Shown: positions 1 to 7,032 of the stretch, in pieces | Position numbering within the stretch: the stretch's first letter is position 1 | Layout: each line of letters starts with the position of its first letter | Source: Actinomycetes bacterium | GTDB taxonomy: Bacteria; Actinomycetota; Acidimicrobiia; Acidimicrobiales; SZUA-35 | DNA length: 7,032 nucleotides | Direction of reading: 5' to 3' | Assembly (NCBI GenBank): GCA_024227975.1 | Contig: JAAETV010000331.1 | Location: forward strand, 1 to 7,032 | Notes under the pieces: model-generated | The model's input: only the letters and a program-made list of their open reading frames with translations | Database searches by the model: none | What the model was told of the DNA's origin: nothing | Translations under genes and position numbers: made by a program

Positions 1-1003
1 GCCGCCAACCAGGCCGACTAGGCCCGGACGACTCGCCGGCGATGTTGAAACGATCGAGCAGGGCCTCTCGGCATCGATCCTTGCCCAACAAGTCCCCGGC
101 AGTGAACCGGTGTGGGATCAGCAGATCTTGATCGGGGCTCCACTCGGTTGGGTCTATACCGTTCACGATGCCGACCAGATGATCGGCCCGGGTTCGTAGG
201 AGCTCGTCGAGGCCCATGCCGTGCTCGGGATCCTGGATCTCGCGGGCATAGGTCTCGCTCACCGTTGACAGCCAGGTGGCGTAGAGGATGCCAGTCTCCA
301 GAAAGCTCACCAGACCGGCCTGCAACCGCTCCTGGTGGAACAGATGCCGTTGGGCCGAGAGGCCGAGCTGATCCACGGCGTCGGCGGCGAAGATCCCCGA
401 GAAACTCAGGTTGTGGATCGACAACAAGGTGGCGGTGGCGGCCAGAGAGGGTACCGAGCGATACGACGTGCCCAAATAGAGGGGCAGGAGTCCGGTATGC
501 CAGTCGTTGCAGTGGATGACGTCGGGTGCCCACGCGGATTGGGCCAGCACTTCGAGCACTCCACGACACAGGGTCGCCCATCGCAGAGGCTCGTCCGGAT
601 CGCTCGTGTAGTACCCATCCCGGTGATACAGCTCGGGGCAGTCGAGTAGCTCGACATCGAGGGTCGAGCCATCGTCGCCCATCGAGTTGGGCAGTGGCAC
701 GGTCGATACACCAACCGTGACCGAGCGACCCGGATAGTCGAGCTGGATGTCTCGGGACCCACTCGTCGGTGTCACCTCGAAACCCGCGGCCTCAACCGTC
801 CCGTAGAGGGGCAGGAAGAGCCGCACCTCGTGGCCCTGGCGATGAAGCGCTCGGCCCAGTGAGGCCACCACGTCAGCAAGCCCACCGGTCTTGGCGAACG
901 GGGCAATTTCAGCAGCAACGAGCGCGATTTTGAGACTTCGAATACCTACGAACGTAGCCCCCGGCGTGACCTCCAGGCGAGTGCACCTATGATCTTGTTC
1001 CAT
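1..1003 (-). CDS. glgA: Glycogen/starch synthase, GT5 family (GlgA-like), N-terminal part, runs off the left edge
   Basis: This gene encodes the N-terminal Rossmann domain of a GT-B glycosyltransferase of family GT5, which elongates alpha-1,4-glucan in the cytoplasm from ADP-glucose (or UDP-glucose). I translated it by hand from the minus strand; 334 codons are in the window. The GT5 signature KTGGLADVV is at residues 38-46, and its Lys binds the sugar nucleotide. Other GT5 blocks are IHCNDWHTGLLPLYL at 163-177, SIHNLSFSGIF at 195-205, LSTVSETYAREI at 245-256 and GIVNGIDPTEWSP at 278-290. The C-terminal domain lies outside the window. ATG at 1003 is chosen because no other canonical start precedes the first conserved strand (LKIALVAAEIAPF, about residue 24). 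It leaves an unusual 20-residue leader and has no clear Shine-Dalgarno. An in-frame ATG also exists at 1048, but it would overlap the divergent gene by 47 bases. The last codons (about 1-25) read poorly for GT5 and fit better in another frame; see findings. The family assignment is secure. Whether the product is glycogen or another glucan is inference. Confidence 0.93.
   Translation of the reverse strand, partial: MEQDHRCTRLEVTPGATFVGIRSLKIALVAAEIAPFAKTGGLADVVASLGRALHRQGHEVRLFLPLYGTVEAAGFEVTPTSGSRDIQLDYPGRSVTVGVSTVPLPNSMGDDGSTLDVELLDCPELYHRDGYYTSDPDEPLRWATLCRGVLEVLAQSAWAPDVIHCNDWHTGLLPLYLGTSYRSVPSLAATATLLSIHNLSFSGIFAADAVDQLGLSAQRHLFHQERLQAGLVSFLETGILYATWLSTVSETYAREIQDPEHGMGLDELLRTRADHLVGIVNGIDPTEWSPDQDLLIPHRFTAGDLLGKDRCREALLDRFNIAGESSGPSRPGWR
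966..993 (+). promoter_or_regulatory. Candidate leaderless promoter of the ATP-grasp/esterase operon
   Basis: TATGAT at 988-993 is a near-consensus -10 hexamer and matches the actinobacterial TANNNT pattern. It sits 8 bases before the ATG at 1002, the distance expected if transcription starts on the A of the start codon. GTGACC at 966-971, 16 bases upstream, matches the TTGACA -35 consensus at four of six positions. A TGA stop in the reading frame at 990-992 leaves only nine bases before the ATG, none resembling a Shine-Dalgarno, so a leaderless mRNA is the simplest reading. The element lies inside the first codons of the divergent glycogen synthase gene. The motif match is seen in the sequence; activity is inference. 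Confidence 0.6.
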
Positions 1004-2258
1004 GACCGCGCTCGTGCTGGTGGCACCATACGGACTCGAGAGCACCATGAAGTTCGTCTCCGCCGCGGCCGGACTTCCCGACGTGCAACTGGGGCTCGTG
1101 TCCCACGAACCGACTGAGGCCTTTGCCACCAGGCTCGACACGGATCTCCGCGACCGAATCAGCGGCTTCGCCCAGGTCGCCAACACCCAGGACCCCGATC
1201 AGCTCGAAGTCGGCGTTCGCGACGTCGGGCGCCAGCTCGGTGGTCAGGTGGATGCGCTGGCCGGGATTCTCGAGCCACTCCAGGAGTCGCTGGCCGTCGT
1301 CCGTCAGCGACTGGGGATCCGTGGCATGGACCCCGAAGAGGCCCGACGCTTTCGGGACAAGGCCCACATGAAGGATGTCCTGCGGGCCAACGGTCTCCCC
1401 TGTGCCAAGCACTGCCTGGCCACCAGTGCCGAGGAGGCACTGGCCTTCGCCGACGAGCTGCTACCGCTGGTGGCCAAGCCTCCGGCGGGAGCCGGCGCCG
1501 TCGATACCTTCAGGATCGACGAGCGAGATCAGCTCGAGACATGGGTCCGGAGCATGCCTCCTTCGTCCCACCAGCCCATCCTCCTGGAGGAGTTCATCCA
1601 GGGCGACGAGTACTCGTTCGACTCGGTATCGGTTGGAGGGGATCATCGCTTCCACTCGATCTCGTCCTACGCCCCGACCCCGCTGGAGGTGATGGAGACA
1701 CCCTGGATCCAGTGGACAGTCCTCCTACCCCGCTCGATCGACGGGCCGGAATTCGAGCCGATCCGACAGGCCGGGCCCCAGGCCCTCAGCGCTCTCGGCA
1801 TGGTGACGGGCATGACCCACATGGAGTGGTTCTGCCGTCACGATGGGTCGATCGCGATCTCTGAAGTTGCGGCCCGCCCCCCGGGCGCCCAGATCACGAC
1901 CCTGATCTCCTATGCCCACGACCACGACTTCTACCGGGCGTGGGCCGAGCTGAACGCGTTCGAGACGTTCGAGCCCCCCGAACGTAGATACGCGACCGGA
2001 GCCGCCTACCTACGTGGCCAGGGTGCTGGCGCCGTCGTCGACGTCGAGGGGATCGACGAGATCCAACGGGAGCTCGGCCCCCTCGTCGTCGAGGCCCAGC
2101 TCCCCCGCCGGGGTCAAGCCAAGTCGGCCAGCTACGAGGGTGAGGGCTACGTCATCTTGCGTCACCCCGAGACCGAGGTGGTCGAGAGCGGGCTGAAACA
2201 GATCGTGTCGAGCCTCCGAGTCCACCTCGGCAACGACGACCATGGAGGTTCGCCATGA
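1002..2258 (+). CDS. ATP-grasp ligase-like protein, first of a tandem paralogous pair
   Basis: A 418-residue cytoplasmic protein of the carbamoyl-phosphate-synthase/biotin-carboxylase-like ATP-grasp superfamily, whose members activate a carboxylate as an acyl phosphate and join it to a nucleophile, usually an amine. Residues 1-105 form the pre-ATP-grasp Rossmann domain (first strand TALVLVAPYG). The FRDK motif is at 117-120. The ATP-binding lysine is in VAKP (157-160, Lys159) next to the flexible loop PAGAGAV (161-167). LLEEFIQGDEYSFD (194-207) holds the acidic residues that contact the adenosine. The metal ligands are Glu275 in THMEW and Glu288 in SEVAARPPG, with Arg292 in the usual phosphate-binding place. 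The Asn common in ExN motifs is Ala290, a change also seen in PurK-like enzymes. All core residues look intact, so I expect an active ligase; the substrate is unknown. It overlaps the next gene by four bases (ATGA). The ATG at 1002 is the first possible start after an in-frame stop at 990-992. Confidence 0.9.
   Translation: MTALVLVAPYGLESTMKFVSAAAGLPDVQLGLVSHEPTEAFATRLDTDLRDRISGFAQVANTQDPDQLEVGVRDVGRQLGGQVDALAGILEPLQESLAVVRQRLGIRGMDPEEARRFRDKAHMKDVLRANGLPCAKHCLATSAEEALAFADELLPLVAKPPAGAGAVDTFRIDERDQLETWVRSMPPSSHQPILLEEFIQGDEYSFDSVSVGGDHRFHSISSYAPTPLEVMETPWIQWTVLLPRSIDGPEFEPIRQAGPQALSALGMVTGMTHMEWFCRHDGSIAISEVAARPPGAQITTLISYAHDHDFYRAWAELNAFETFEPPERRYATGAAYLRGQGAGAVVDVEGIDEIQRELGPLVVEAQLPRRGQAKSASYEGEGYVILRHPETEVVESGLKQIVSSLRVHLGNDDHGGSP
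2244..2248 (+). promoter_or_regulatory. Strong Shine-Dalgarno of the second ATP-grasp gene
   Basis: GGAGG lies six bases before the ATG at 2255, inside the last codons of the upstream gene. Together with the ATGA stop/start overlap it fixes the start and points to coupled translation. This is the best ribosome binding site in the window and contrasts with the apparently leaderless first gene. Confidence 0.8.
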
Positions 2259-3484
2259 GAGTCTTGATGATCTCGCCCGGGTTTCCGGCTGACATCCCGT
2301 ACTTCACCCGGGCACTATCCAATATCGGGGCCCAGGTGCTCGGAATCGGCGATCAGCACGAGTCAGGCCTACCCCCCGAGGTCAGCGACGTGCTGTCCGG
2401 CTACTTGCAGACGACCGACTTGTGGGCCGAGGACAATACGGTCGATGAGGTGGCCAACTGGCTCAGCTCCCACGGTGTTGGCGTCGACCGGGTGGAGTGC
2501 CTCTGGGAGCCAGGCGTTGTGCTTGCGGCCAAGCTGCGGGCCCGTCTCGGTATTGGCGGCCTGTCAGTCGAGCAAGCCATCGCTTTTCGCGACAAGGAGA
2601 CCATGAAGCAGGTTCTCGACGCGGCTGGGATCAGGACCCCCCACCACTATCGAGCCGAGACCGCCGACGAGGTCCGATCAGCGGCCGAGAGAATCGGCTA
2701 CCCCCTGGTGGTGAAGCCCATCGCCGGAGCCGGCTCGGCCGACACCTACACCGCCGATGGTCCCGACGACCTCGAAGCAATTCTGGCCGCCGTCTCCCAT
2801 GTGGCCGAAGTCTCGGTCGAGGAATACATCGACGGAGAGGAGTACACCTACGACACCGTCACCGCCAACGGTGAGGTCTTGTTCGAGAGCGTCACGTGGT
2901 ACCGGCCAAAGCCATTGGTCACCCGACTGAATCCGTGGATCAGCCAGTCCGCCATCTGTCTTCGCGACATCACCACCCCCGAGATCGCGGTCGGCGTCGA
3001 CCTGGGCCGGCGGGTGCTGGCCGCCCTCGGTTTCACCACCGGGTTCACCCACATGGAGTGGTTCCGAACCCCATCGGGAGAGGCCGTCTTCGGAGAGATC
3101 GGTGCTCGGGCCCCCGGGGGCAGACTCCCCCACGGGATGAACCTCTCGGCCGACTTCGACGTGTTCACTGGATGGGCTGAAGCGGTCTGCTCGGGCCGGA
3201 TCTCCCAGGACACCACCAAGGTCTACAATGCGGCACTGGTCTTCAAGCGAGCCCAGGGCGACGGTACCCATATCAGCCGGATCGAGGGCTTGGAGCCCCT
3301 TCTCGTCGAATACGGTGCTCTCATGCCCGTCCTCGATCTCGCGCCGGTTGGTGCGGCCAGAAGCGATTGGCGTCAGGTCGTTACCGGTGACGGATGGATG
3401 GTGGCCCGCCACCCAGACCTGGCAACGACACTTCACATTGCTGATCGCCTCGCCTCCGAGGTCAGGTTGATCGCCGATCGGTGA
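2255..3484 (+). CDS. ATP-grasp ligase-like protein, second of the tandem pair
   Basis: A 409-residue paralogue of the gene just upstream, probably another cytoplasmic carboxylate-amine (or similar) ligase. The N-terminal Rossmann-like domain begins MRVLMISPGFP. A WEP motif (84-86) ends a strand before the FRDK motif at 111-114. The ATP-binding lysine is in VVKP (152-155, Lys154), followed by the glycine-rich loop GAGS (158-161). VEEYIDGEEYTYD (188-200) carries the nucleotide-binding acids. Glu268 in THMEW and Glu281 in GEIGARAPGG are the expected metal ligands, with Arg285 beside them. The pair also share a C-terminal pattern in which a Trp or Tyr is followed by ARHP or LRHP (gene 1 near 383-389, this gene near 381-387), which suggests duplication over the full length. 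The substrate pocket segments between the motifs differ clearly, so the two may act on different substrates or in successive steps. The stop codon is part of the ribosome binding site of the next gene. Specific reaction unknown. Confidence 0.9.
   Translation: MRVLMISPGFPADIPYFTRALSNIGAQVLGIGDQHESGLPPEVSDVLSGYLQTTDLWAEDNTVDEVANWLSSHGVGVDRVECLWEPGVVLAAKLRARLGIGGLSVEQAIAFRDKETMKQVLDAAGIRTPHHYRAETADEVRSAAERIGYPLVVKPIAGAGSADTYTADGPDDLEAILAAVSHVAEVSVEEYIDGEEYTYDTVTANGEVLFESVTWYRPKPLVTRLNPWISQSAICLRDITTPEIAVGVDLGRRVLAALGFTTGFTHMEWFRTPSGEAVFGEIGARAPGGRLPHGMNLSADFDVFTGWAEAVCSGRISQDTTKVYNAALVFKRAQGDGTHISRIEGLEPLLVEYGALMPVLDLAPVGAARSDWRQVVTGDGWMVARHPDLATTLHIADRLASEVRLIADR
3480..3484 (+). promoter_or_regulatory. 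Shine-Dalgarno overlapping the upstream stop codon
   Basis: GGTGA at 3480-3484 lies seven bases before the ATG at 3492 and contains the TGA stop of the second ATP-grasp gene. A ribosome terminating there would sit on the next initiation site, so reinitiation is likely. This favours ATG 3492 over the in-frame ATGs at 3513 and 3516, which lack a comparable site. Confidence 0.55.
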
Positions 3485-3491
3485 ACGGCTC

Positions 3492-5729
3492 ATGATCATC
3501 AGAAAGCGCAACATGATGAGAAGCTCCGGAGAGCGGCAGATACTGCTGCTCGGGCCCCAACGACACCAACAGGGCGTCGCCAAGGCCATCAGTGATCTCG
3601 GTGTCAACGGCACCCTGGCGACTGTGACCGCCGGGTGGGAGGAGCGCGAGCACGAGGACACTGTGCTGTCCCAAGATCTGGACGGTCGGACCCGCAATCT
3701 CGGCCTTTATCCCCGGGCAGAAGACGTCTACGTTCACGACAGCTTTGTCCGGACCCTGATCGAGGAGCGCCACGATCGGCTGCGCCAGTTGCAGGAGCTC
3801 TACCGCTTTCGGCTGGCCCCCCAGCTCCAGGTATGCCGGGCCCTGCTGGCCCGCACCAAGCCAGGTGATCCCGACAGCCTGCTGGACCCCGAGATCGACA
3901 GCGCCATCGACGGCGTACGAGCCTTGGATCAACATCATCTCGACCGGATCTCGACACTCGAAGCAGAGATAGCCGAGCGGTTGGCCGATCGTCGGCGACC
4001 CTCCATCGAGCACCATCGAGTCGAGCTGGCACGAACATTGGACGAGGCCGATGCCCTGCTCGTCGCCGGCGGAAATGTAGGAACACTGCTCACCCTGCTA
4101 CGCCTGTTCGACGTCTTCGGTCTCGCTGACACGAAGCCCGTCGTTGCCTGGTCGGGTGGAGCGATGGTGCTCACGGAGCGCGTCGTTCTCTTTCACGACA
4201 ACCCACCCCAGGGGCCGGGCGATGCCGAACTGTACGGACCGGGCCTGGGGTTGGTGACGGGCCTGGTCCCGCTGCCCCATGCACGTCATCGGCTCCAGCT
4301 CGACGATCTCGGGCGGGTCGCCCTGTTCGCTCGGCGGTTCGCACCGGCCTCGTGCGTGACCCTCGACTACGGGGGTCGCATCGATCGTTCCCCATCCCCT
4401 GACCGGTGGCAACCGAGCGGAGGAGCGTGCGTGCTGGGCCTCGACGGCCGGGTGGAGGCAACGGTCGGCTCCTCGACAGCCTCTGAGTGGCCAAACACCG
4501 ATCTTGGATCGGGGATCGACCTGAAACTCCGGGACCCAGCGGTCGAGAGCGAGACCACCCTCACTAGCGGTCCCAGTCCTGTCGTCGGCGACGCCAATGT
4601 CGTCATCAGCGACCTCACCAACGGCGCCCACAATGGACGGGCGGCACTCGATCGGGCCCTGGATGCCTGGACCTTCCCCGTCGTCGGTGACGGCTGGGCC
4701 CTGTTCGTCTACCGGGGCTCCGCCAACGAAGTGAAACTGCAGCACTGGGTGTCGGGGCTCCCTTCGGCGCTCCCCTTCCAGCCGATTCCCGGTACGGAGC
4801 TGTGGGTCCTGGAGACCGACATCCAGCACGAAGCTCGGATCGAGTACAAATTCGAGATCGTCAGGGGCAACGGACGCGAACTCATACGCGATCCGCTGAA
4901 CGACACGATGGCCCACGACCCCTTCGGTGCCAACTCGGTGGTGCAGGGCCTCGGCTATGCCAGACCACCCTGGACCCACGACCAACCAACGACCCGCAAG
5001 GGCGAGGTGGTCGACGGTTCGGTGGCGAGCACCGTGTTCGGCCAGAACCGCCCCTACTCGGTGTACCTGCCAGCCCGCTTCCGAGAGACCAGACGCTACC
5101 CCCTGCTGATCGTGCACGACGGCATGGAATACGCCCACTACGCCGCCCTGGTGACGGTTCTCGACAACATGATCCATCGACTGGAGATCCCGCCCCTGGT
5201 GGCGGCCCTGATCCAGTCTCCGGAGCGGACAACTGAGTACGGGGCCGACGACCGCCATGCTCGATTCCTCGTCGATGAGCTGGTCCCGGCCCTGGAAGGT
5301 ACCTTTCCCCTGCTGAGCAACCCCCGCGATCGGGGGCTGGTCGGCGCCAGTCTCGGCGCCGTCGCCAGCCTGCACACGGCATGGTCCCACCCCGGGAGCT
5401 TCGGCAAGCTGCTGTTGCAGTCGGGCTCGTTCGCCTTCACCGACATCGGCGACCACGACCTCGGGCCAGTGTTCGACCCGGTGGTCGAGTTCGTGAACCA
5501 ATTCCGGAAAGACCCGGGCCGGCCCGCAGGCCAGGTCTTCCTCTCGGCTGGGATCTACGAGTCGCTGATCTACTTCAATCGGTCACTCCTCCCTGTGTTC
5601 CAGGAGACGGGAGCCGACGTCCGCCTGGTCGAAGCCCATGACGGCCACAACTGGGAGAATTGGCGCGACCAGCTCCGGGAGGGTCTCACCTGGCTGTTCC
5701 CTGGTCCTCTATGGATGGACTATGAGTAA
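3492..5729 (+). CDS. Two-headed hydrolase: peptidase S51-like domain fused to early-set plus Fes-type esterase
   Basis: A 745-residue protein with no signal peptide or membrane segment visible, so probably cytoplasmic. Residues about 15-325 resemble the peptidase S51 (dipeptidase E/cyanophycinase) fold within the class-I glutamine amidotransferase-like group. They include a first strand QILLLGP, a charged helical stretch (about 85-185), LLVAGGN at 189-195, the nucleophile elbow AWSGGAM (219-225, Ser221), a histidine-bearing segment PLPHARHRL (260-268) and LDYGG (291-295) near the place of the GIDE segment of S51 enzymes. Residues about 390-480 look like the early-set (immunoglobulin-like) domain found N-terminal to enterochelin-esterase-type hydrolases. 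Residues about 510-740 are the alpha/beta hydrolase: strand YPLLIVHDG (536-544), nucleophile elbow GASLGA (618-623, Ser620), candidate acid Glu690 in SAGIYES and His719 in DGHNW. Both active sites look complete. The position between ATP-grasp genes suggests release, trimming or turnover of their product. The esterase call is firm; the S51 call is a family-level judgement from motifs. Confidence 0.85.
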   Translation: MIIRKRNMMRSSGERQILLLGPQRHQQGVAKAISDLGVNGTLATVTAGWEEREHEDTVLSQDLDGRTRNLGLYPRAEDVYVHDSFVRTLIEERHDRLRQLQELYRFRLAPQLQVCRALLARTKPGDPDSLLDPEIDSAIDGVRALDQHHLDRISTLEAEIAERLADRRRPSIEHHRVELARTLDEADALLVAGGNVGTLLTLLRLFDVFGLADTKPVVAWSGGAMVLTERVVLFHDNPPQGPGDAELYGPGLGLVTGLVPLPHARHRLQLDDLGRVALFARRFAPASCVTLDYGGRIDRSPSPDRWQPSGGACVLGLDGRVEATVGSSTASEWPNTDLGSGIDLKLRDPAVESETTLTSGPSPVVGDANVVISDLTNGAHNGRAALDRALDAWTFPVVGDGWALFVYRGSANEVKLQHWVSGLPSALPFQPIPGTELWVLETDIQHEARIEYKFEIVRGNGRELIRDPLNDTMAHDPFGANSVVQGLGYARPPWTHDQPTTRKGEVVDGSVASTVFGQNRPYSVYLPARFRETRRYPLLIVHDGMEYAHYAALVTVLDNMIHRLEIPPLVAALIQSPERTTEYGADDRHARFLVDELVPALEGTFPLLSNPRDRGLVGASLGAVASLHTAWSHPGSFGKLLLQSGSFAFTDIGDHDLGPVFDPVVEFVNQFRKDPGRPAGQVFLSAGIYESLIYFNRSLLPVFQETGADVRLVEAHDGHNWENWRDQLREGLTWLFPGPLWMDYE

Positions 5730-5732
5730 TCT
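5727..5732 (+). promoter_or_regulatory. Weak candidate internal -10 element before the third ATP-grasp gene
   Basis: TAATCT fits TANNNT and ends 8 bases before the ATG at 5741, the same spacing as the operon promoter. No Shine-Dalgarno is visible in the 11-base gap, so some alternative way of starting translation is needed. The -35 region is poor (TGGTCC at 5702-5707 matches three of six). Short AT-rich matches arise by chance, so this is tentative. Confidence 0.25.
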
Positions 5733-5740
5733 GGGTCTAT

Positions 5741-6991
5741 ATGGGAACACAGGTGACTCGACGGATCGGTCTCTCACTAGGAGCCGACATCTGCTGGCCG
5801 AAATGCTTCGAGGACATCCTCACCCGCTGGGACCCGGCCCTGCGCCTCGGTGATGACACGGTCCGCTTCGAGGTCGAGCGGGTCTCGATCGAGCCCTTCG
5901 ATCTACGCAAACCAGTCGACTACGACGTCGTCATTGATCGATTGACCCATTGGCACGCCAACACCCGTGAGTGGATCAAGAAGGCGATCCTGCTCGACGA
6001 CCTCTATGTGTTCAACAACCCGTGGTCGGTCCAGTCGATGGAGAAACAGACCACCTACTGCGCCATGATGCGGTTGGGGCTGCCGGTCCCCGAGACCTGG
6101 ATGGTGCCACCGAAGGAATATGAGGAAACGGCGGATCTGGAACCAACCCTGCAGCGCTACGCCTCCCTGTTCGATCTCGAATCCATTGGTGAGGTCCTGG
6201 GCTACCCCTTGTTCATGAAGCCCTACGACGGTGGAGGTTGGGTTGGCGTATCCAAGGTCGATGATGCCGAGGAGCTAGAAGCGGCCTATGACACCAGCGG
6301 CAAGTTCCTGATGCATCTGCAGAAGGGGGTCGACCCTTGGGATCACTTCGTCCGTTGTGTCGGCGTCGGTCCCCAGCTCCGAGTCATCAACTACGACCCT
6401 GATGCCCCCCTCCATGGCCGCTACACCGACACATTCGACCACCTCCCAGCGAGCGATCTGGCCCAGCTGAGGGCCATGACGCTCACCATCAACACCTTCT
6501 TCGGCTGGGACTTCAACTCGTGCGAGTGCTTGGGCGGAGATGGCGCCTGGAGTCCCATCGACTATGCCAATCCCTGCCCGGACTCCCAGGTGACTTCACT
6601 GCATCGCCACTTTCCGTGGTTGGTGCTGGCCAAGCTTCGGTGGGCCATGTTCTGCGCCGCCACTGATCGGCCGTTTCGCAAGAATCTCGACTGGCAGCCG
6701 TTTTTTGACATCGCCGCCACCGATACCGACTACCAAGACAAGCTCGAGGCGTACGGTCAGTTGGCCGAGCAGCACTTCGACACCGACGCCTTCCAAGAGT
6801 TCTGTGATGAGCACCTGGGCCCGTTGGAAGAAGTCGCTTGGGAGTACTTCTCCAGCGATGACGCCAAGGCCGCTGTGCGTGAGAAGGTGACGGCGTTGTA
6901 TCCCGACAACGAGGTGGAGGAGTTCACCGAGCGCTTCTGGGCTGCGATCCAGACGTGGCGGGACGAGGACTCACCGGCGGCCTTGTCATGA
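5741..6991 (+). CDS. Third ATP-grasp protein, RimK-like type, with an acidic helical C-terminal tail
   Basis: A 416-residue cytoplasmic protein not closely related to the tandem pair. After an N-terminal alpha/beta domain (RRIGLSLGADICWP, 7-20; YDVVIDRLTHW, 61-71) it has FNNPWSVQSMEKQ (91-103), where the Asn-Pro then Lys arrangement matches the RimK/glutathione-synthetase branch of ATP-grasp. The ATP-binding lysine is Lys160 in LFMKPYDGGGWVGV (157-170). HFVRCVGVGPQLRVI (202-216) supplies the arginines typical of this branch. Glu262 in CECLG, Asp274 and Asn277 in IDYANPCPDS (273-282) are the likely metal ligands, so the site looks competent. Residues about 300-416 form a long, Asp/Glu-rich, mostly helical extension with several Trp and Phe residues and no motif I recognise. 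An in-frame TGA at 5723-5725 limits the start: ATG 5741 is the first option, GTG 5753 a plausible alternative. The gene lies 11 bases after the hydrolase and overlaps the next start by four bases. Likely a ligase of the same pathway; substrate unknown. Confidence 0.87.
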   Translation: MGTQVTRRIGLSLGADICWPKCFEDILTRWDPALRLGDDTVRFEVERVSIEPFDLRKPVDYDVVIDRLTHWHANTREWIKKAILLDDLYVFNNPWSVQSMEKQTTYCAMMRLGLPVPETWMVPPKEYEETADLEPTLQRYASLFDLESIGEVLGYPLFMKPYDGGGWVGVSKVDDAEELEAAYDTSGKFLMHLQKGVDPWDHFVRCVGVGPQLRVINYDPDAPLHGRYTDTFDHLPASDLAQLRAMTLTINTFFGWDFNSCECLGGDGAWSPIDYANPCPDSQVTSLHRHFPWLVLAKLRWAMFCAATDRPFRKNLDWQPFFDIAATDTDYQDKLEAYGQLAEQHFDTDAFQEFCDEHLGPLEEVAWEYFSSDDAKAAVREKVTALYPDNEVEEFTERFWAAIQTWRDEDSPAALS

Positions 6992-7032
6992 GCCACCTCT
7001 CCCAGAGCTGGTTCTCCTCACGACTACGACGA
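6988..7032 (+). CDS. Start of a further operon gene, first 15 codons, runs off the right edge
   Basis: ATG at 6988 overlaps the TGA of the preceding gene in an ATGA, the same arrangement as between the first two operon genes, and the frame stays open to the window end. The visible peptide begins MSHLSQSWFSSRLRR. The Ser-Trp-Phe-Ser-Ser-Arg-Leu run vaguely resembles the start of small alpha/beta-hydrolase esterases that accompany ATP-grasp genes, but 15 residues cannot support a function. No strong Shine-Dalgarno is present, which fits translational coupling. Confidence 0.5.
   Translation, partial: MSHLSQSWFSSRLRR

What the first reader, a model, noticed from the sequence alone, without database searches (positions are those of the whole stretch)
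1002..7032. Uncharacterised ligase-hydrolase operon: three ATP-grasp enzymes plus a two-headed serine hydrolase
Seen: three intact-looking ATP-grasp proteins of two types, one S51-like/esterase fusion and the start of a fifth gene, with overlaps or gaps of 4 to 11 bases. Known: ATP-grasp ligases form amide and peptide bonds, S51 enzymes (dipeptidase E, cyanophycinase) cleave acidic or beta-aspartyl peptide bonds, and Fes-type esterases open ester or depsi bonds. Inference: the operon makes and then processes a peptide, amide or ester metabolite or storage compound, in logic like cyanophycin synthesis and turnover but with different enzymes. No Mur-ligase domain, adenylation domain, carrier protein or precursor peptide is visible here.
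Basis: partly seen in the sequence, partly recalled or inferred. Interest (0 to 1): 0.8.

Follow-up and report, generated by a model that had tools for sequence, protein, structure and literature searches.

The report
Glycogen-linked ligase and esterase operon
A set of ligase and esterase genes with no known function keeps company, across several bacterial phyla, with its own branch of glycogen synthase, which suggests an undescribed pathway that attaches small molecules to, or makes them alongside, a glucose polymer.

Summary
The window carries two L-amino-acid-ligase-type ATP-grasp genes (A1, A2), an S51-like/Fes-type esterase fusion (E), a RimK/Ddl-like ATP-grasp (D) and the start of a second PF00756 esterase (Est2). 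The minus-strand neighbour is glycogen synthase (GlgA). The set is conserved: of 37 related loci with over 9 kb on each side of D, 37 carry S51, Est1 and D, and 21 carry all eight components (with GlgA, A1, A2, a third ligase A3, and Est2). D goes with the A family genome-wide (41 of 41 D+ Myxococcota against 4 of 99 D-; 5 of 5 D+ Acidobacteriota against 1 of 144). GlgAs linked to the A genes form one supported clade. S51 lacks its nucleophile in 8 of 66 copies, so a cyanophycinase-like role is doubtful; esterase and ligase catalytic residues are invariant. Best reading: a cytoplasmic pathway that builds, and trims by esterases, an amide/ester conjugate tied to an alpha-glucan. The product is unproven. 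No GlgA lies in the Acidimicrobiia loci, and few D+ Myxococcota have it linked, so it may be optional.

The parts
2..943 (-). GlgA, ADP-glucose type glycogen synthase (GT5), 3' part cut by the window end; start codon not settled
   Evidence: Pfam Glyco_transf_5 226 bits; TIGR02095 glgA 260.6 bits; inside the linked GlgA clade, support 100*
1002..2258 (+). A1: ATP-grasp ligase, L-amino-acid-ligase type, 418 aa
   Evidence: A1 clade support 100*; K159, E196/E197, E275, E288, R292 in 39 of 39 rows
2255..3484 (+). A2: ATP-grasp ligase, L-amino-acid-ligase type, 409 aa
   Evidence: phmmer to 4wd3 L-amino acid ligase E 2.2e-21; A2 clade support 99*; K154, E189/E190, E268, E281, R285 in 42 of 42 rows
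3492..5729 (+). E: S51-like domain (with a predicted helical hairpin) fused to an Enterochelin_N/CBM48-like domain and a PF00756 (CE1/Fes-type) esterase, 745 aa; two adjacent frames in many relatives
5741..6991 (+). D: RimK/Ddl-like ATP-grasp core plus a helical C-terminal part, 416 aa
6988..7032 (+). Est2: start of a second PF00756 alpha/beta-hydrolase; whole in relatives (245-257 aa in the three scanned)
   Evidence: first 15 residues; cluster 3; Pfam Esterase 33.6-44 bits in three relatives; found in 69 of 80 loci

Best explanation
A dedicated cytoplasmic pathway. Shown by comparison: D and the A-family ligases occur together genome-wide; S51, Est1 and mostly Est2 stand with D by locus over several phyla; and a distinct GlgA clade sits next to the A genes in many of them. 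Inferred: the three A-type ATP-grasps (separate paralogues, so probably non-redundant) and D each activate a carboxylate as an acyl-phosphate and join it to an amine or hydroxyl, giving a small amide/ester unit. GlgA, or in some lineages another glycogen synthase of the cell, supplies an alpha-1,4-glucan chain that bears or accepts this unit. Est1 and Est2 cut or transfer the ester link. S51 is a binding or regulatory partner rather than an obligate peptidase. The product would be an aminoacyl- or peptidyl-modified alpha-glucan or malto-oligosaccharide. Steps and product are not shown.
For: All eight parts in 21 of 37 loci with full flanks. Order S51-Est1-D on one strand in 66 of 80 loci, with Est2 next in 55 of 80. 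GlgA within 700 bp of an A gene in 39 of 41 GlgA-bearing loci. D and at least one A-family gene co-occur genome-wide: Fisher 3e-31 in Myxococcota (41 of 41 D+, 4 of 99 D-) and 1e-8 in Acidobacteriota (5 of 5, 1 of 144). GlgA at E <= 1e-25 in 39 of 41 D+ against 48 of 99 D- Myxococcota, Fisher 3e-8; a GT5 match, some weak, in 26 of 26 D+ genomes. Linked GlgAs form one clade, 100*, of 26 rows: 25 linked plus one from another D+ genome. In Acidobacteriota 4 of 5 D+ genomes have a GlgA at E <= 2e-79, the best D- genome 5e-63. GlgC-type genes recur in 23 of 80 loci (cluster 5; one member checked); GlgB, GlgP and debranching clusters recur in 4 to 5 loci each. Est1 Ser and His in 71 of 71 rows, Est2 Ser and His in 66 of 66 loci. 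Est1 matches Fes and CBM48-CE1 esterases by fold.
Confidence: 0.33

Rival explanations
1. A small soluble amide, peptide or depsipeptide metabolite, made by sequential ATP-grasp ligations and opened by Fes-like esterases, perhaps glucosylated by GlgA or simply co-regulated with glycogen.
For: A1-A3 resemble L-amino acid ligases. Est1 is Fes-like. Other amidoligases recur: GCS2-CBS (cluster 7, 11 loci), a BesA/PGM1-type ligase (cluster 16, 4 loci) and an N-formylglutamate amidohydrolase-like gene (cluster 9, 7 loci). D' near Est2-like and GCS2 but no GlgA.
Against: No transporter, NRPS or tailoring gene stands out among the nine clusters annotated (the other recurrent clusters were not annotated). 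The GlgA clade specific to the linked loci is unexplained.
Confidence: 0.3
2. A protein-tagging or glutamylation system of the RimK kind that controls glycogen enzymes, with hydrolases reversing the tag.
Confidence: 0.15
3. A cyanophycin-like nitrogen store, made by the ligases and mobilised by S51, kept beside glycogen as a paired carbon store.
For: ATP-grasp plus S51 plus glycogen genes; both kinds of reserve are made under nutrient imbalance (established knowledge).
Against: No Mur-type domain in the window's proteins; cyanophycin synthetase model 41.3 bits at best against a cut-off of 850. S51 nucleophile lost in 8 of 66. Four single-step ligases rather than one polymerase.
Confidence: 0.12
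4. Unrelated genes that merely sit together.
For: In G010 the modules A3-GlgA-A1-A2 and S51-Est1-D are about 0.49 Mb apart, and neighbours differ between phyla.
Against: Genome-wide co-occurrence of D and the A family even where unlinked; conserved order in 66 of 80 loci.
Confidence: 0.03

Closest known systems
Classical bacterial glycogen (glgBXCAP-type) operon
   Same: GlgA of the ADP-glucose type; GlgC, GlgB, phosphorylase or debranching genes in some related loci
   Different: No paper held mentions ATP-grasp with glycogen synthase and operon, and none of the listings I saw describes a glg operon with ATP-grasp ligases or PF00756 esterases; the linked GlgA is its own clade
Enterobactin esterase Fes (PRK10439, 2b20/3mga)
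   Different: 91.8 bits against the equivalog cut-off of 222; no siderophore genes among the annotated clusters; fused to or next to an S51-like domain
L-amino acid ligases (4wd3, BL00235, BacD, DdaF)
   Same: A1-A3 fold family and catalytic residues
   Different: Three paralogues kept together in one locus; far below equivalog cut-offs
RimK / LysX-ArgX / D-Ala-D-Ala ligase
   Same: ATP-grasp core of D
   Different: Sequence below the cut-off of every NCBIfam model listed; extra helical C-terminal part, residues about 310-410
Cyanophycin synthetase / cyanophycinase
   Same: ATP-grasp and S51 folds
   Different: No Mur domain; S51 nucleophile not conserved in all copies
Amidoligase gene networks of Iyer, Aravind and co-workers (2009; recalled, paper not held)
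   Same: ATP-grasp, GCS2 and hydrolase genes in shared neighbourhoods
   Different: Whether that paper lists this set could not be checked
Mycobacterial methylglucose lipopolysaccharide (recalled)
   Same: An alpha-glucan with acyl esters made in the cytoplasm
   Different: No ATP-grasp ligases that I recall there; no sequence test made

Membership tests
Cyanophycin metabolism | Cyanophycin synthetase with ATP-grasp and Mur-ligase-like domains | tested here: not met
   TIGR02068 24.7 (A1) and 41.3 bits (A2), cut-off 850; no Mur domain in Pfam
Cyanophycin metabolism | S51 hydrolase with intact nucleophile Ser | tested here: inconclusive
   Ser in 58 of 66 copies, the window's included; Ala, Gly or Thr in 8; S51 match under the Pfam cut-off
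Glycogen synthase GlgA | ADP-glucose type GT5 model above cut-off | tested here: met
   L007 GlgA, linked, near full length: TIGR02095 509 bits, cut-off 328; the window copy is cut off and reaches 260.6 bits
L-amino acid ligases (ATP-grasp) | ATP-grasp fold with Lys, Glu-Glu, metal-binding Glu pair and Arg | tested here: met
   Invariant in A1 39 of 39 rows, A2 42 of 42 rows and A3 48 of 48 loci; residue roles recalled from the family
L-amino acid ligases (ATP-grasp) | Dipeptide formation from free amino acids | not testable with these tools
   needs an enzyme assay
RimK family | TIGR00768 above cut-off | tested here: not met
   D 15.6 bits, cut-off 143.4; fold alone matches
D-Ala-D-Ala ligase | TIGR01205 above cut-off | tested here: not met
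   D 25.5 bits, cut-off 245.65
Enterobactin esterase Fes | PRK10439 equivalog above cut-off | tested here: not met
   91.8 bits, cut-off 222
PF00756 esterases | Family score and GxSxG Ser and His | tested here: met
   E 69.2 bits, cut-off 22; Est1 71 of 71 rows, Est2 66 of 66 loci
Graspetide (RiPP) clusters | Conserved precursor peptide near the ligase | tested here: inconclusive
   Frames of 25 aa or more in gaps of 90-3500 bases between parts of the 80 loci: the best recurring ones match 6 other loci, and the 25 shown lie in S51-Est1 gaps (mostly gene ends) or in GlgA-A1 gaps of three of the near-identical loci L007-L010; sequence outside those gaps was not tested
Anti-phage defence (PADLOC) | Any PADLOC model | tested here: not met
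   0 families for 6 proteins at E <= 0.001

The most novel reading that the evidence does not exclude
Several bacterial phyla make a glutamyl- or aminoacyl-decorated alpha-glucan: a dedicated glycogen synthase builds the chain, three amino-acid ligases and a RimK-like ligase build a short (perhaps glutamate-rich) unit that primes or decorates it, and two esterases release it. It would be a bacterial counterpart of a peptide-bearing glycogen, or a mixed carbon-nitrogen reserve of a kind not known.
Probability: 0.15. Interest if true: 0.92.

Novelty: new variant of a known kind. Interest (0 to 1): 0.7.

Why it matters
One scan of species genomes with D found 405 stretches that encode a relative. 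In the large protein database the 120 best matches, all at 64% identity or more, are named hypothetical or generic ATP-grasp proteins where named at all; 6,877 of 7,998 scored candidates match, though that threshold may admit other ATP-grasps. A conserved eight-gene set of clear enzyme classes without a product is a directly testable gap: four ligases, two esterases and a special glycogen synthase point to one missing metabolite. If the glucan link is right, bacterial glycogen is chemically modified in a way not described in the papers I could search.

Tried and rejected
Cyanophycin-like storage: rejected as main reading. Graspetide or carrier-protein system: no widely conserved small frame in the gaps between parts. 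Defence: no PADLOC match. S51 against solved-structure sequences: no match up to E 1, so its triad could not be placed by alignment; the E model's structure search was filled by the esterase part, so the S51 fold rests on the sub-threshold Pfam match alone. Est1 N-domain as a glucan binder: only weak CBM_20/CBM_48 matches, Enterochelin_N matching 15 of 15. Structure search cannot separate ligase from kinase for D (RimK 17.1, ITPK1 16.3, synapsin 15.9).

Literature, by search listings only: ATP-grasp + glycogen synthase + operon, 0 papers; ATP-grasp + glycogen synthase + gene cluster + esterase + uncharacterized, 0. Broader searches listed 2 of 2, 20 of 21, 25 of 323, 2 of 2 and 15 of 114 papers; no listed title or abstract start describes this set. 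One review (PMC11046441) was looked at by passages: 0 'ATP-grasp', 0 'esterase' in the two thirds of it that are held. Subscription papers were not searchable.

Full report
What is there. One search gives A1 1002-2258, A2 2255-3484, E 3492-5729 and D 5741-6991, all on the plus strand, with a fifth frame from 6988. Overlaps and gaps are 4, 7, 11 and 4 bases. On the minus strand lies part of a glycogen synthase. The near-identical named copies of D (99 and 98%) are labelled Actinomycetia bacterium. The nearest genomes by D include Acidimicrobiia.

Conservation. A scan with D matched 409 stretches, 405 of which encode a relative; the best 80 were kept, so counts lean to close relatives. By record title they are Planctomycetota 25, Pseudomonadota 18, Myxococcota 12, Acidobacteriota 8, Actinomycetota 6, Eiseniibacteriota 1, unassigned 10. 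Of 37 with over 9 kb on both sides of D: S51 37, Est1 37, Est2 30, A3 29, A2 26, A1 25, GlgA 23; all eight in 21. Those 21 are Planctomycetota 11, Myxococcota 4, Pseudomonadota 3 and unassigned 3; L007-L010 among them look like near copies of each other (positions, phyla). Five of the 37 have only S51, Est1 and D nearby. S51-Est1-D stand in this order on one strand in 66 of 80 loci and with Est2 next in 55. GlgA lies within 700 bp of an A gene in 39 of 41 GlgA-bearing loci.

Genome-wide. All 26 D+ genomes searched have a GT5 match, some weak. Of the 26, 25 have three or more A-family genes at E <= 1e-38; G020 has one. In Myxococcota D occurs in 41 of 140 and at least one A-family gene in 45 of 140, including all 41. 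In Acidobacteriota D proper (E <= 1e-60) occurs in 5 of 149 and the A family in 6 of 149, including all five. Fisher P is 3e-31 and 1e-8; relatedness is not corrected for. D was also found in 34 of 199 Planctomycetota, 11 of them at only 36-44% identity, and in 5 of 148 genomes of the class of G001.

A dedicated GlgA. A quick tree of 59 GlgAs puts the window and the other 24 linked copies in one branch of 26 rows with 100* support. The one unlinked member, L087, comes from another D+ genome, G009. In Acidobacteriota four of the five D+ genomes have a GlgA at E <= 2e-79, while the best D- genome reaches 5e-63. Against exclusivity: two D- and A- Myxococcota genomes have GlgAs with scores like the linked type and were not in the tree. 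Against necessity: G001 and G002 have only a GlgA outside the branch, and only 12 of 41 D+ Myxococcota have GlgA within 6 kb of an A gene, against at least 28 of 41 with D within 10 kb of an A gene (both lower bounds). Still, 39 of 41 D+ Myxococcota have some GlgA against 48 of 99 D-.

Three ligases, not one copied. A1, A2 and A3 form three groups with support 100*, 99* and 99*, though the program warns of long branches meeting. ATP-grasp residues are invariant in each.

Hydrolases. Est1 and Est2 keep Ser and His in every copy aligned (71 of 71 rows, 66 of 66 loci). S51 keeps its Ser in 58 of 66. A strict peptidase role for S51 is therefore doubtful, which weakens the storage-compound comparison.

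Side genes. GlgC-type (23 loci), GCS2-CBS (11), N-formylglutamate amidohydrolase-like (7) and a BesA/PGM1-type ligase (4) recur beside the set, with GlgB, phosphorylase and debranching clusters in 4 to 5 loci each (one member of each cluster was scanned). They point to glucan and to glutamate-type amide chemistry. Several other recurrent clusters were not annotated.

A second, smaller system. A short D paralogue (27-35% identity) is common in Acidobacteriota. In 7 fetched loci it stands near an Est2-like gene in 3, and, among the neighbours I chose to scan, near a GCS2 gene in 2 and a permuted ATP-grasp in 2. One of these loci also holds a PGM1-type ligase. No GlgA was found in those loci. This ties D to Est2 and amidoligases apart from glycogen, and is the main reason to keep the free-metabolite rival open.

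Verdict. The gene set is real, widely conserved and, as far as I could search, without a described product. The glucan link is well supported as an association in part of the lineages and unproven as chemistry.

Noticed in passing
L151:8777-11610 and 12525-14051, L153:8756-13407: Short D paralogues in Acidobacteriota near Est2-like esterases, GCS2 carboxylate-amine ligases and, in one locus each, a PGM1-type ATP-grasp or an M29-like peptidase: a possible separate small amidoligase system.
   Followed up: partly
L051:7585-8418 (alignment): S51-like protein with Ala in place of the nucleophile Ser; 8 of 66 copies lack Ser.
   Followed up: partly
G573, G619, G475, G646, G586: D relatives of only 40-44% identity in Planctomycetota, and six more at 36-39%: possibly further subfamilies with other partners.
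   Followed up: no
L012, L025, L030, L036, L038 between Est1 and D: About 0.8 to 4.1 kb lie between Est1 and D in these loci (positions); content not studied.
   Followed up: no
G256:C64 and G208:C8: GlgAs scoring like the linked type in Myxococcota genomes without D or the A family.
   Followed up: no
L070 (genome G020): A Woeseiaceae genome with S51, Est1, D, Est2, GlgA and A3 but no strong A1 or A2 match: an incomplete bin or a reduced form of the set.
   Followed up: no
P0196: The A1 relative of planctomycete Poly30 is named carbamoyl-phosphate synthase large chain, and others biotin carboxylase: probable misannotation.
   Followed up: no
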